DNA from: Phycisphaeraceae bacterium
GTDB taxonomy: Bacteria; Planctomycetota; Phycisphaerae; Phycisphaerales; Phycisphaeraceae
Direction: 5' to 3'
NCBI GenBank assembly: GCA_029260715.1
Contig: JAJDCS010000044.1
Span: 1 to 64,000 of the forward strand
Length of the DNA: 64,000 bases
Notes under the pieces: generated by a model
Told to the model about the DNA's origin: nothing
The model's database searches: none
What the model saw: only the letters and a program-made list of their open reading frames with translations
Translations under genes and position numbers: made by a program
Part shown: positions 60,285-64,000 of the stretch, in pieces
Numbering within the stretch: the first letter of the stretch is position 1
How the letters are laid out: every line of letters starts with the position of its first letter

Positions 60285-60312
60285 TTGACACCCGCTTTCT
60301 ACGGGCTAAACT
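60285..60312 (+). promoter_or_regulatory. Candidate promoter of the pseudokinase cluster
   Basis: Perfect -35 TTGACA (60285-60290), a 16-bp spacer and -10 TAAACT (60307-60312), 112 bp upstream of the first cluster gene. Confidence 0.5.
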
Positions 60313-60424: not shown

Positions 60425-62416
60425 ATGCCACCATCGCCGGAACATCGGTCTAGCCTCGGGCGGGTTCCTCAAGGGTATGCGGTGATCCCGGTCAGCGAGG
60501 ACCAGGCGGCGGCGTCTTTGCGCATCGGGGTGCTGGTGCGCCAAGAGCCGGACCCCGTGGCGGGGCACTTTGTGGTGTTGCGCGACACGGTCGATGCCCA
60601 GGTCTTCCTGGGCGCGGTCACGGACACCGTCGGACGCGTGACGCAGTGGGTGGAGGTGTGGGTCCAGAACCTGGCGGGTCTGACGCAGGTCGTCCCCGCG
60701 TACCTCGAAGCGTTATCCAACCACGCGTTGGACCAGCGGTGGAAAGAGCAAGCCGCCAGCTTCGCGCAACTCGACGAAGCGACCGTCATCCACACCGGCT
60801 GGGAAAGCCACCACCCCAAGCCGGTGTTTTTAGACCTGGACAAGAAGCAACCGATCCACCCGCTCGACGCCCAGTCGGGCGAGCATTGGGCGTTGTGCCA
60901 GGACGATGGGTTTTTAGAGCAGAAGAAACTGCCGGCTTACAGCACGTCGCTGCACCGTTATTTGTATCTGAAGGAGATGGGGGGTCAGTCGCCGGTTGTG
61001 ACGGTGACTGCTGATTCGCCCAGCAACGATAGCTGCTGGCCGATGTCGAAGCTGACCGACAGCCAGGGCGGGCGACTTGTGCCCCTGAACGCGGGCGGTG
61101 GGCTGATGATGGTGCGCCCGTTCGCGCCGATCGGGTTCGAAGCGTTTGTGGACCTGCTGGGCAGCGGGCAGTGGGACGGGATCCGCCACGGCAAGTCGGT
61201 GCTGGACTTGGGGCTTGGCGTCCAGTCGCTGCAGGGCACCGACGGCGACGGCGAGAAGCGGGCGTCGGACGGGTGGCTATTCTTGGGCGCATCGGGGCGG
61301 TGGAGCCGGCTGATTGAAACCATGCACCTGAAGCTGCGCCTGCTATCCGACACGATCGCCGCGGCCAGGGCCATCACCCAGCACACGCAGAAGCCGATCT
61401 TCAACCTGACCCCCGCCAGCTTCCGTGTGAGCTTGGGACAGCGGGGCAGTGAGCTGCCGTTTTTGTGGACCGCGAAGAACACGCTGGTTGATCCCGGCGT
61501 GGCGATTGCGTTGCCGCTTCAGACCAGCGACTACCGGTACTACATGCCCGGGCGTGGCGAGGCGGCTTCGATCTACCACCCGCAGACCGCCGGCCGGTCG
61601 GTGCAGGGGCAGGGGGCGCTACGCATTAGGGAAGTATTGGACAGCAGCGGGGGGGTGATCACGCTCGAAGGCACGCTGACCACGCAGGATAAGATCGCCC
61701 CGGCGCGTCACGACCTTGCTTGGCTGCGGCTGAACCTGGGGTCGGGGCGTACTGATTTGTACGCTCACCTGGACCGCGAGGCGGCGATGGCCGAGGGCGA
61801 GTGGCGGTTCCGCACGGTCAAGCAGAAGCTATCGAAAGAAGCGCAGGCGGCGCTCAAAGCGGCTGAGGGCGTGCCCATGCCCGACACGCCGTTCGAGATT
61901 GTGCCGCTGCTTAGCTCGCCGTGTGACATGTACGCGCTGGGCGTGTTGGCGGTGCGCACGCTCTTGGTGGATAACGAAACAAAGCTGTCGGTGGCGTTGG
62001 ACGAGGTGCTGAGCCTGGCCCGGCAGGTGGGGCAGGACCAAGACGCGTCCGCGGAATTGTCCGACCGGATCGAGGCTGTATTTAGTCAGGATGACCGGTG
62101 GGTCGGTTCGCTTGGGCCTCACCGCATGAGCCACGAGCCGCTGGAGCCTGCCGACGCGTTCGACGTGGTGCCACCCAAGCTGTGGTGGGACGTGCTGGCG
62201 ATGGTGGTGCGATTGTTCCCGGGGATGGCCGGCGACTGCCCGTGCCACGATTTCGGCGACGCGCCCCAAGGCGGTATCCACAAAATATACGAGCGGTCGC
62301 TTGGCGACCTAGGCTCTTTGATCTTGCGCACCAGGAGCTTGATTGTGATCGATTGGAGATTCAACCGCGAAGTCCATATGGTGTTGCGCAGGTTACAGGT
62401 GGGGCTGTCGTCGTAG
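60425..62416 (+). CDS. Large cytoplasmic protein with degenerate kinase-like domain
   Basis: 663 residues, no signal peptide or membrane span. The middle and C-terminus follow protein-kinase order but with altered catalytic residues: NLTPASFRV stands where DLKPxNILI is expected, LVDPGVAIAL where DFG is expected, and SSPCDMYALGVLAVRTLLV matches the sDvYalGvll helix. It is therefore a probable pseudokinase. The N-terminal 250 residues are unrecognised. First gene of a cluster with a lipoprotein and a second pseudokinase, all on plus. Confidence 0.65.
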   Translation: MPPSPEHRSSLGRVPQGYAVIPVSEDQAAASLRIGVLVRQEPDPVAGHFVVLRDTVDAQVFLGAVTDTVGRVTQWVEVWVQNLAGLTQVVPAYLEALSNHALDQRWKEQAASFAQLDEATVIHTGWESHHPKPVFLDLDKKQPIHPLDAQSGEHWALCQDDGFLEQKKLPAYSTSLHRYLYLKEMGGQSPVVTVTADSPSNDSCWPMSKLTDSQGGRLVPLNAGGGLMMVRPFAPIGFEAFVDLLGSGQWDGIRHGKSVLDLGLGVQSLQGTDGDGEKRASDGWLFLGASGRWSRLIETMHLKLRLLSDTIAAARAITQHTQKPIFNLTPASFRVSLGQRGSELPFLWTAKNTLVDPGVAIALPLQTSDYRYYMPGRGEAASIYHPQTAGRSVQGQGALRIREVLDSSGGVITLEGTLTTQDKIAPARHDLAWLRLNLGSGRTDLYAHLDREAAMAEGEWRFRTVKQKLSKEAQAALKAAEGVPMPDTPFEIVPLLSSPCDMYALGVLAVRTLLVDNETKLSVALDEVLSLARQVGQDQDASAELSDRIEAVFSQDDRWVGSLGPHRMSHEPLEPADAFDVVPPKLWWDVLAMVVRLFPGMAGDCPCHDFGDAPQGGIHKIYERSLGDLGSLILRTRSLIVIDWRFNREVHMVLRRLQVGLSS

Positions 62417-62504
62417 CCTGGTGTGTATTTAAAAGCCTGTTCGGAACGTTAAAACGCAATGGGGAAGAAAGAACAGGGTGGTGTATCAATCGAAAGGGTC
62501 TTCT

Positions 62505-63128
62505 ATGCATCGCAGATTTAATTTTGCTGTCGGGCTTACGGTTGTCCTGCTTTCGGTGATTGTGCTTGGTGGCTGCGGGGGAGGCAAGACGGTCGAGGGC
62601 TTTAAGAAGATCCGTTACGGCGGGTTGCTGCCCAGCGCGGCCAAGCCGTTCGACGTGGTGATTAAGCTCGATGAAGATAGCTGGCGTCGCGCGTACGGCG
62701 ATGTGCTGCCGTCTTTGGAGATCGACCTAGTCGGCATCAACGACGGCGAGAAGCCCACGTGGGAGAACTACCCGATCAACAAGTACTTCAGCCCCAACGA
62801 CCACTGGCGCCGCGACGCCGACCGGGTGACCAAGACCTTCACCACGAATGACCGGGAAACCAAGACATTCTCGCGTTACAACCCGATCTGGGGCGAGTGG
62901 ATCGGGCGGCCGACGATCCTCGGGGGCAGCGGCACGGGCAAGGGCGCCAAGTGGCTGTTTGTGATCGCCAACATCCCCGGCGGGCAGGACCAACCCGGCG
63001 CCCAGGACGCGAGGCGTGTGATCCTTCCGCTTAGCGGCAGTAGCTGGCCCATGGGCACCAAGGAAGTCGAGGTCGTGATCAAGAGCAGCATGATCGTCTG
63101 CACGACACCTACCAAGGACCAGAATTAA
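62505..63128 (+). CDS. Lipoprotein of unknown function
   Basis: 207 residues from ATG 62505; GAAAGGG lies upstream. A signal peptide ends in the lipobox-like VLGGC, so the mature protein should be lipid-anchored. The domain (KKIRYGGLLPSAAKPFDVVI, SLEIDLVGINDGEKPTWENY, PINKYFSPNDHWRRDADRVT) is beta-rich, and the sequence mentions aromatic residues in pairs but has no known motif. Conserved position between two kinase-like genes suggests it is the extracytoplasmic part of the system. Confidence 0.7.
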   Translation: MHRRFNFAVGLTVVLLSVIVLGGCGGGKTVEGFKKIRYGGLLPSAAKPFDVVIKLDEDSWRRAYGDVLPSLEIDLVGINDGEKPTWENYPINKYFSPNDHWRRDADRVTKTFTTNDRETKTFSRYNPIWGEWIGRPTILGGSGTGKGAKWLFVIANIPGGQDQPGAQDARRVILPLSGSSWPMGTKEVEVVIKSSMIVCTTPTKDQN

Positions 63129-63173
63129 TCGGGTCATTTTTGACAACGCCGAGCAATCACCCGGATCGACCTG

Positions 63174-64000
63174 ATGGCGAAGACTTACGGCAGCTACGAA
63201 GCGGTTCAAGAGCTGCATCGTGGCTGGCTGACCACGGTCTTTGGCGCTCGGCGCACTGACGCCGGGCCCGAGACGCGGTTCGCGGTCAAAGTGTTCGAGC
63301 CGCCGCCGGGCAGCCTCACCCCCGAGGTGCTCCAACAAGAGATAGAGTTTTTCTTGCAAGCCGCGAAGGACCAGCAGGCCCTGGCGGCGGGCGGCGCGGC
63401 GTATTTGTCGCCCATCCACGAATCCGCGGCGACCGCGGAAGGCGCGTACTACGCCACGGACCTGTACGAACGCCCGGCGGATCGGCTGATCGTCGGGCAC
63501 GTGAAGATCAACACGCACGCGCTGCACACCACCATCTCCTCGGTGATGAAGGGTTTGGTCCAGTGGCAGGAGGCCAACAGCAGGCCCCACGGCAACGTCA
63601 AGCCGACGAATGTGTTTTTAATTGAGGCGCAGTATGGCGTGCTGAGTCACGCGGTGCTGGCCGACCCGCTGGCGGCGGGCAAGCTCAAAGCAGGCAGCGG
63701 CCCGCACACCGACCTGCACGCGGTCGGCGAGTTGATCCACAAGCTGATCCTGCACAAGCCGTTCACCGAGTTGGGCGGTTGGCCCGTGCCCGAGTCGCCG
63801 CACTGGGCGCACCTGGGCAAGAAGGCAGACCCGTGGCGGGAACTGTGCAACAAACTGCTGGACCCGGACCTGGCCAAGCAGTGCCCCACGCTTCAAGAGC
63901 TGATCGAGCAGGAACTGCCGGGGCTGGCGGCGCCGCCAGCGAAGTCGGTTTCAAAAGTAGCGGTGGCCGCGGGTGTGCTGGCGGTGGCGGTGGCGGGGGG
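63174..64000 (+). CDS. Pseudokinase with membrane anchor, 3' end beyond window
   Basis: ATG 63174 opens a frame with no stop through position 64000 (275 codons visible). Kinase features: RFAVKVFEPPP (beta-3 Lys), then HGNVKPTNVFL in place of HRDLKPxN (catalytic Asp missing) and VLADPLAAG in place of DFG. A hydrophobic stretch (SKVAVAAGVLAVAVAG) begins a likely membrane helix at the window end. The missing catalytic Asp marks it as a pseudokinase. Separated from the lipoprotein by 45 bp, so cotranscribed. Confidence 0.72.
   Translation, partial: MAKTYGSYEAVQELHRGWLTTVFGARRTDAGPETRFAVKVFEPPPGSLTPEVLQQEIEFFLQAAKDQQALAAGGAAYLSPIHESAATAEGAYYATDLYERPADRLIVGHVKINTHALHTTISSVMKGLVQWQEANSRPHGNVKPTNVFLIEAQYGVLSHAVLADPLAAGKLKAGSGPHTDLHAVGELIHKLILHKPFTELGGWPVPESPHWAHLGKKADPWRELCNKLLDPDLAKQCPTLQELIEQELPGLAAPPAKSVSKVAVAAGVLAVAVAG

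What the first reader, a model, noticed from the sequence alone, without database searches (positions are those of the whole stretch)
60425..64000. Pseudokinase - lipoprotein - pseudokinase cluster
Both kinase-like proteins lack the catalytic Asp (Asn or Gly-Asn where HRD is expected) and have Asp-Pro in place of DFG, yet keep other kinase landmarks (Lys in beta-3 of the second, KPxN, and the D-x-YALG helix). Between them sits a lipoprotein of unknown fold. A good promoter (60285-60312) precedes the first gene, and the third runs off the window. Two divergent pseudokinases with the same DFG-to-DP change and a lipoprotein suggest a signalling or envelope scaffold rather than a phosphorylation cascade.
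Basis: partly seen in the sequence, partly recalled or inferred. Interest (0 to 1): 0.75.

Follow-up and report, generated by a model that had tools for sequence, protein, structure and literature searches.

The report
Dead-kinase module of planctomycete T6SS
Two kinase-like proteins that have lost the residues needed for catalysis, and the lipoprotein between them, are the start of a type VI secretion gene cluster (a bacterial toxin-injection machine), and they suggest that in this group of bacteria the machine's usual phosphorylation switch has been replaced by non-enzymatic scaffold proteins.

Summary
Beyond the window edge the contig continues with TssK, TssL, TssM and a TagF-like gene, so the three genes are the left end of a type VI secretion (T6SS) operon. 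Sheath, baseplate, ClpV and VgrG genes lie on two other contigs of the same genome. The 'lipoprotein of unknown fold' has the TssJ fold: Foldseek's top PDB hits are all TssJ, best Z 11.2, although Pfam's TssJ model misses it. The third gene is really 1862 aa: pseudokinase, one membrane helix, a long stretch, then an FGE-like domain without catalytic cysteines. It has PpkA's architecture with a dead kinase. The first gene is a degenerate kinase too: its AlphaFold model failed, but profile comparison with real kinases beats all controls, and distant relatives keep HLDLKPEN. The triple is conserved as a block in about 10% of Phycisphaerae, nearly always with T6SS. The next gene is the C-terminal part of Fha/TagH without its FHA domain, and no PppA-type phosphatase was found. 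I read this as a T6SS whose threonine-phosphorylation switch has been replaced by non-catalytic scaffolds. The identities are well supported; the scaffold mechanism is inferred.

The parts
60425..62416 (+). ORF1, 663 aa, cytosolic kinase-like protein without catalytic residues (pseudokinase); first gene of the T6SS operon
   Evidence: ORF; 36-member family with invariant helix-F Asp, HRD Asp replaced; profile vs real kinases P 5.8e-5, above all controls; distant relatives keep HLDLKPEN; AlphaFold model failed
61382..61435 (+). ORF1 degenerate catalytic loop, HTQKPIFNLTPASFRVSL (N327 at the HRD Asp position)
   Evidence: family alignment, aligned with HGNLK of ORF3 and with PHLDLKPEN of L173
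61484..61498 (+). ORF1 degenerate DFG site, LVDPG (residues 354-358)
   Evidence: D 20/36, P 19/36, G 34/36
61914..61948 (+). ORF1 helix-F motif SSPCDMYALG (D501 invariant)
   Evidence: aligned with kinase helix F
62505..63128 (+). Diverged TssJ, outer-membrane lipoprotein of the T6SS membrane complex (lipobox LGGC, Cys codon at 62574)
   Evidence: AlphaFold model; Foldseek top hits all TssJ; VIA Z 10.5-11.2 against 6 for the next unrelated fold; TssJ profile P 5e-4
63174..64000 (+). ORF3, first 275 of 1862 aa (gene continues to contig position 68762): N-terminal pseudokinase, then membrane helix; coil-like stretch and FGE-like domain lie beyond the window
63588..63614 (+). ORF3 degenerate catalytic loop HGNVKPTNV
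   Evidence: HRD Asp is Asn in 21/35 and Asp in 1/35 of the family
63939..63995 (+). ORF3 predicted membrane helix (residues 256-274)
   Evidence: hydropathy scan; the same place in most relatives

Best explanation
The three genes are the first part of a T6SS membrane-complex operon: ORF1, tssJ, ORF3, tagH without FHA, tssK, tssL, tssM, tagF-like. ORF3 is a PpkA/TagE-type trans-envelope protein whose cytosolic kinase domain has lost catalysis. It would span the inner membrane once and reach through the periplasm with its long coil and FGE-like end towards TssJ/TssM at the outer membrane. ORF1 is a second, cytosolic dead kinase that works with the Fha/TagH scaffold. In known systems PpkA phosphorylates Fha or TssL, an FHA domain reads the phosphothreonine and PppA resets it. 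Here the catalytic Asp, the FHA domain and a PppA-type phosphatase are all missing, so the two pseudokinases most likely act as phosphorylation-independent scaffolds that recruit or hold the Fha C-terminal domain, TssK and TssL at the membrane complex. Shown: gene identities, loss of catalytic residues, conservation and linkage. Inferred: topology, absence of phosphotransfer, partner contacts and the scaffold role.
For: Downstream TssK/TssL/TssM and the remaining T6SS genes in the same genome. Lipoprotein has the TssJ fold; no other TssJ in the class by Pfam. ORF3 kinase domain homologous to kinases and to T6SS PpkA with catalytic Asp lost family-wide; kinase-TM-FGE layout in relatives. ORF1 kinase-derived. 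Triple conserved and T6SS-linked. Gene before tssK is the TagH C-terminal domain without FHA. ORF1 fused to FHA-TagH in L172. No PP2C_2 in the genome; FHA proteins and PF00069-recognised kinases only on other contigs. ORF1 under purifying selection. PpkA has a structural role in Acidovorax (PMC12607579); EssB is a precedent for a pseudokinase in a secretion system (PMC10765036).
Against: No experiment. ORF3 keeps beta-3 Lys (21/35), DFG Asp (23/35) and catalytic-loop Asn (24/35), so nucleotide binding or weak activity is possible. ORF1's fold was not modelled. Hcp and TssE were not located. PppA could be a phosphatase of another family; kinases and FHA proteins exist elsewhere in the genome and could act in trans. 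The genome is 96.5% complete in 44 contigs. Topology rests on hydropathy only.
Confidence: 0.65

Rival explanations
1. ORF3 is a catalytically divergent but working enzyme: a weak kinase, or a kinase-fold transferase with another chemistry, that still modifies a T6SS component as PpkA does.
For: Beta-3 Lys, DFG Asp and catalytic-loop Asn are kept in most ORF3 members. An HRD Asp-to-Asn change does not always abolish activity (own knowledge, e.g. HER3).
Against: The Lys is lost in 14/35 and the loop Asn in 11/35, so these are not under strict constraint. The reader domain (FHA) and the PppA family are missing too. The FGE-like domain is also without its cysteines.
Confidence: 0.2
2. The triple is a sensor module like TagQRST-PpkA: the FGE-like periplasmic end senses envelope damage or contact and passes it conformationally through the pseudokinase to Fha. 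A regulated switch and not a static scaffold.
For: TagR is the periplasmic activator of PpkA (PMC10482370) and, from own knowledge, FGE-like; ORF3 carries such a domain on the same chain. The triple can sit apart from the T6SS core, as a regulator might. ORF3 evolves faster than ORF1 and TssK.
Against: No direct comparison with TagR was made, and nothing shows sensing. It differs from the best explanation in degree only.
Confidence: 0.1
3. ORF1 and ORF3 are decaying remnants of kinases without a role.
For: Loss of catalytic residues; faster evolution of ORF3 (dN/dS 0.30-0.49).
Against: Intact reading frames and conserved order in many families; ORF1 dN/dS 0.11-0.14; the same losses fixed across the class.
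Confidence: 0.03

Closest known systems
PpkA/TagE, the T6SS threonine kinase (Pseudomonas aeruginosa, Serratia, Agrobacterium, Acidovorax citrulli)
   Same: N-terminal kinase domain, one membrane helix, periplasmic C-terminus, encoded with tssJKLM and Fha (PMC12607579)
   Different: Catalytic Asp lost; C-terminal FGE-like domain on a very long periplasmic part; no PppA found; Fha partner lacks FHA
TssJ (SciN/Lip), T6SS outer-membrane lipoprotein
   Same: Lipobox, transthyretin-like fold with TssJ as the best structural match, linked to tssKLM
   Different: Sequence too diverged for PF12790; encoded between two pseudokinase genes
Fha/TagH
   Same: C-terminal domain of the gene before tssK
   Different: FHA domain missing in the Phycisphaerae family; present in planctomycetes of other classes
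EssB/YukC, pseudokinase of the type VIIb secretion system
   Same: Cytosolic pseudokinase, one membrane helix, extracytoplasmic C-terminus, core part of a secretion machine (PMC10765036)
   Different: Another secretion system; binds FHA domains of EssC, which the Phycisphaerae TagH lacks; homology beyond the kinase fold not tested
TagQRST sensor module of Pseudomonas H1-T6SS
   Same: TagR is a periplasmic activator of PpkA (PMC10482370) and, from own knowledge, an FGE/SUMF1-like protein; ORF3 carries an FGE-like domain on the same chain
   Different: Fused instead of separate; no TagS/T seen in the cluster; direct comparison with TagR not made

Membership tests
Type VI secretion system | TssK, TssL, TssM in the same operon | tested here: met
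Type VI secretion system | Sheath, baseplate, ClpV and VgrG genes in the genome | tested here: met
   TssC on C14 and TssF on C32 by family search; TssA, TssB, TssG, ClpV, VgrG by sequence reading and matches in relatives
Type VI secretion system | Hcp and TssE | not tested
   no family search made; C14 begins and C32 ends where these genes would be expected
TssJ | Lipoprotein signal and TssJ beta-sandwich fold | tested here: met
   lipobox LGGC
TssJ | Sequence homology to TssJ | tested here: inconclusive
   PF12790 does not match; profile of four TssJ aligns over the whole length at P 5e-4
PpkA/TagE kinase | Catalytic HRD Asp | tested here: not met
   Asn here; Asp in 1 of 35 relatives
PpkA/TagE kinase | Kinase domain, membrane helix, periplasmic part, T6SS gene context | tested here: met
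   periplasmic location itself inferred
Protein-kinase fold (ORF1) | Bilobal kinase structure | tested here: inconclusive
   AlphaFold model failed, pLDDT 36
Protein-kinase fold (ORF1) | Homology to kinases in the C lobe | tested here: met
   hhalign score 41.6 vs control maxima 26.2 and 21.3; relatives with HLDLKPEN and Pfam Pkinase 7e-6
Fha/TagH (gene before tssK) | T6SS Fha C-terminal domain | tested here: met
   hhalign with 7 TagH, prob 82, P 1e-5, controls 0.2 or worse; PF20232 itself only weak
Fha/TagH (gene before tssK) | FHA domain | tested here: not met
   no FHA match in 26 members
Formylglycine-generating enzyme (ORF3 C-terminus) | FGE-sulfatase domain | tested here: met
   PF03781 4e-5, over cut-off
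Formylglycine-generating enzyme (ORF3 C-terminus) | Catalytic cysteine pair near the C-terminus | tested here: not met
   only conserved Cys is in GCRLPT
EssB | Cytosolic pseudokinase, one membrane helix, outer C-terminal domain | tested here: met
   layout only, compared with PMC10765036
EssB | Sequence homology to EssB | not tested
   only the architecture was compared

The most novel reading that the evidence does not exclude
A lineage of T6SS in Planctomycetota has given up the PpkA-Fha-PppA threonine-phosphorylation switch and replaced it with two obligatory pseudokinase scaffolds: ORF1, a previously undescribed T6SS-linked family found upstream of tagH/tssK in several planctomycete classes and in one case fused to FHA-TagH, and ORF3, a dead PpkA fused to a dead FGE-like domain. 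Assembly would be set by conformational coupling across the envelope, with no phosphotransfer.
Probability: 0.45. Interest if true: 0.75.

Novelty: new variant of a known kind. Interest (0 to 1): 0.6.

Why it matters
T6SS post-translational control is usually described as PpkA phosphorylating Fha or TssL, with Fha reading the mark. A conserved T6SS in which the writer is dead, the reader domain is gone and the eraser family is absent separates the structural role of PpkA and Fha from the catalytic one by natural experiment. It makes testable the idea that PpkA is first of all a structural element of the membrane complex. It also supplies a diverged TssJ that standard annotation misses, and a new T6SS-linked protein family (ORF1).

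Tried and rejected
Single-sequence Pfam, PDB and NCBIfam searches of the three proteins gave nothing usable; the NCBIfam hit all3515 to ORF1 (0.003) is far below its cut-off and is treated as chance. ORF1 and lipoprotein profiles against PDB sequences gave only chance hits. The promoter was rejected as evidence. The weak Pfam T6SS_FHA_C hit alone was not accepted; the genome scan with that model found nothing, and acceptance rests on profile-profile comparison. A shared ancestral DFG-to-DP change in ORF1 and ORF3 was rejected, because ORF1 relatives vary (RHSG, DLA). The decay explanation was rejected on dN/dS and conservation. Literature searches found no paper that combines T6SS, Planctomycetes and pseudokinases; one reports T6SS in freshwater Planctomycetacia without details (PMC6461901).
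Full report
What is there. The window is bases 1-64000 of contig C39 (127,494 bp) of a 3.32 Mb genome. The three ORFs are at the stated places. Reading on past the window, the third ORF is 1862 aa and ends at 68762. It is followed on the same strand by a 329-aa ORF (69340-70329), TssK (70503-71927), TssL (71931-72647), TssM (72665-76144) and a 397-aa TagF-like ORF (76202-77395). TssK, TssL and TssM are clear (PF05936 2.5e-65; DotU 6.2e-12; IcmF-related 9.3e-59). TagF is weak. Upstream is a gene that reads as amidophosphoribosyltransferase, so ORF1 is the first gene of the block. The rest of a T6SS is in the same genome. Family searches placed TssC on C14 and TssF on C32. Sequence reading and profile matches in relatives give TssA, TssB and TssC on C14, and an ImpE/TagJ-like gene, TssF, TssG, ClpV and VgrG on C32. 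An annotated cluster on a Pseudoalteromonas plasmid has a matching order: ppkA, tagH, tssJ-K-L-M, tagF, a PP2C phosphatase, tssA-B-C, tagJ, tssE-F-G-H.

The lipoprotein. No sequence library recognises it, and PF12790 finds no TssJ in any of 397 Phycisphaerae genomes although 71 of them have TssK. An AlphaFold model from five sequences (pLDDT 71, pTM 0.71) matches TssJ structures first in Foldseek (4a1r, 3zhn, 6ixh, 4y7o, 3rx9), followed by the Francisella lipoprotein IglE. In VIA-align the TssJ entries stand at Z 10.5-11.2, IglE at 6.7 and transthyretins at 6.0. A profile of four annotated TssJ proteins aligns along its whole length (P 5e-4; controls 0.1 or worse). I take it as a diverged TssJ.

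ORF3. The N-terminal domain profile (35 relatives) finds bacterial Ser/Thr kinases in the PDB (StkP E 4e-14), real Phycisphaerae kinases (hhalign prob 99.5) and a T6SS PpkA-type kinase (prob 97.8). The HRD Asp is Asn in 21/35, another residue in 13/35, and Asp in one member that lacks the other motifs. The typical motif is HGNLKxxNV. The DFG site is xDP. The beta-3 Lys is kept in 21/35. The helix-F Asp is invariant. A single hydrophobic helix follows the kinase domain in most relatives (256-274 here), then a long stretch, then an FGE-sulfatase domain (PF03781, over cut-off). That domain lacks the C-terminal cysteines of the enzyme; the only conserved Cys is in GCRLPT. So both recognisable enzyme folds appear non-catalytic.

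ORF1. It has no library hit on its own. Three lines support a kinase origin. First, the profile (with the beta-rich insertion left out) against 34 real kinases scores 41.6 (P 5.8e-5), while 120 column shuffles reach at most 26.2 and ten unrelated profiles at most 21.3. Second, against ORF3's domain it aligns LLNL with HGNL, LVDP with LTDP and CDLYALG with DLHALG, score 26.9 against a shuffle maximum of 21.6. Third, distant relatives from other planctomycete classes link the families: L173 matches the ORF1 profile at 1e-33 and carries SPHLDLKPENIMV and IIDLA at the aligned positions, with a Pfam Pkinase match of 7e-6, below the Pfam cut-off for a whole protein. Catalytic-loop residues were therefore present in relatives and lost here. 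ORF1 is under purifying selection (dN/dS 0.11-0.14 among three MAGs).

Conservation. ORF1 is in 43 of 397 Phycisphaerae genomes. 37 of those 43 also have TssK, against 34 of the 354 without ORF1 (Fisher 4e-26; relatedness is not corrected for). In nearly all loci read, ORF1, tssJ and ORF3 are adjacent and in this order, either directly before tagH-tssK-tssL-tssM or as a separate island. The island arrangement is seen in the single-contig genomes G345 and G063 and so is not an assembly artefact. Two relatives have the block without ORF1 (L096, L097). Outside the class, more distant ORF1 relatives sit close before tagH/tssJ-tssK-tssL-tssM, and in L172 ORF1 is fused to an FHA-containing TagH. A fusion of this kind suggests that ORF1 and Fha act together.

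The missing phosphorylation parts. The gene before tssK in the window's genome aligns with the C-terminal domain of TagH (P 1e-5), and no member of its family has an FHA match, whereas TagH of L171, from another class, has both FHA and FHA_C. The genome has no PP2C_2 protein. Its FHA proteins and PF00069-recognised kinases are on other contigs than the T6SS. In described systems PpkA phosphorylates Fha or TssL, Fha binds the phosphothreonine and PppA resets it (PMC10482370, PMC3953482, PMC12607579). PpkA in Acidovorax is also called a structural component, and the polar placement of its foci without TssW does not need its catalytic activity, although Fha foci there do need active PpkA (PMC12607579). 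A pseudokinase with the same layout, EssB, is a core part of type VIIb secretion and binds FHA domains of EssC (PMC10765036).

Mechanism. The most likely reading is that ORF3 is a trans-envelope scaffold tying the cytosolic assembly platform (Fha C-terminus, TssK, TssL) to the TssJ-TssM complex, and that ORF1 is a cytosolic partner of Fha. Both would use the kinase fold for binding and not for catalysis. The gene identities, the loss of residues and the linkage are shown. The contacts and the absence of catalysis are inferred. An Asp-to-Asn change in HRD does not exclude weak activity, so a divergent enzyme is the main rival.

Novelty. T6SS, TssJ, PpkA and Fha are known kinds. A T6SS with dead PpkA, FHA-less Fha and a second pseudokinase family was not found in the papers searched, which cover only open-licence full texts. 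I rate it a new variant of a known kind.

Noticed in passing
L172 7907-12172 (-): An ORF1 relative from another planctomycete class is fused to an FHA domain and TagH-like C-terminus in one 1421-aa protein.
   Followed up: partly
L173 7514-10747 (-), L176 7707-11135 (-): Distant ORF1 relatives keep HLDLKPEN and a DLA in place of DFG, so they may be active kinases and would date the loss in Phycisphaerae.
   Followed up: partly
G000 contig C8, L013 10235-11884 (-): A second TssC-like sheath protein (549 aa) stands alone beside ribosomal protein genes, away from the T6SS loci.
   Followed up: no
G000 contig C32, L045 335-4725 (-): A pentapeptide-repeat protein and a DUF2169-like protein lie directly after VgrG; candidate T6SS cargo or adaptor genes.
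   Followed up: no
L091 351-10253; L098-L105: Other Phycisphaerae families have a different T6SS type: one with a 1720-aa kinase-like protein (HGV, EFG) beside a divergent ORF1, others with TssKLM, no ORF1, and (seen in L100) a lipoprotein directly before tssK.
   Followed up: partly
L005/L006, ORF3 and the gene before tssK: ORF3 and the TagH-like gene diverge much faster (dN/dS 0.3-0.5) than ORF1, TssJ and TssK (0.06-0.14) between the same two MAGs.
   Followed up: no
L004 11781-12665 (+): The ORF3 reading frame of this MAG breaks after 294 aa near the contig end, whereas the near-identical L005 copy is open for 1387 aa; probably an assembly error.
   Followed up: no
L076/L077 (G345), L088/L089 (G063): In single-contig genomes the ORF1-tssJ-ORF3 block lies far from the T6SS core cluster.
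   Followed up: partly
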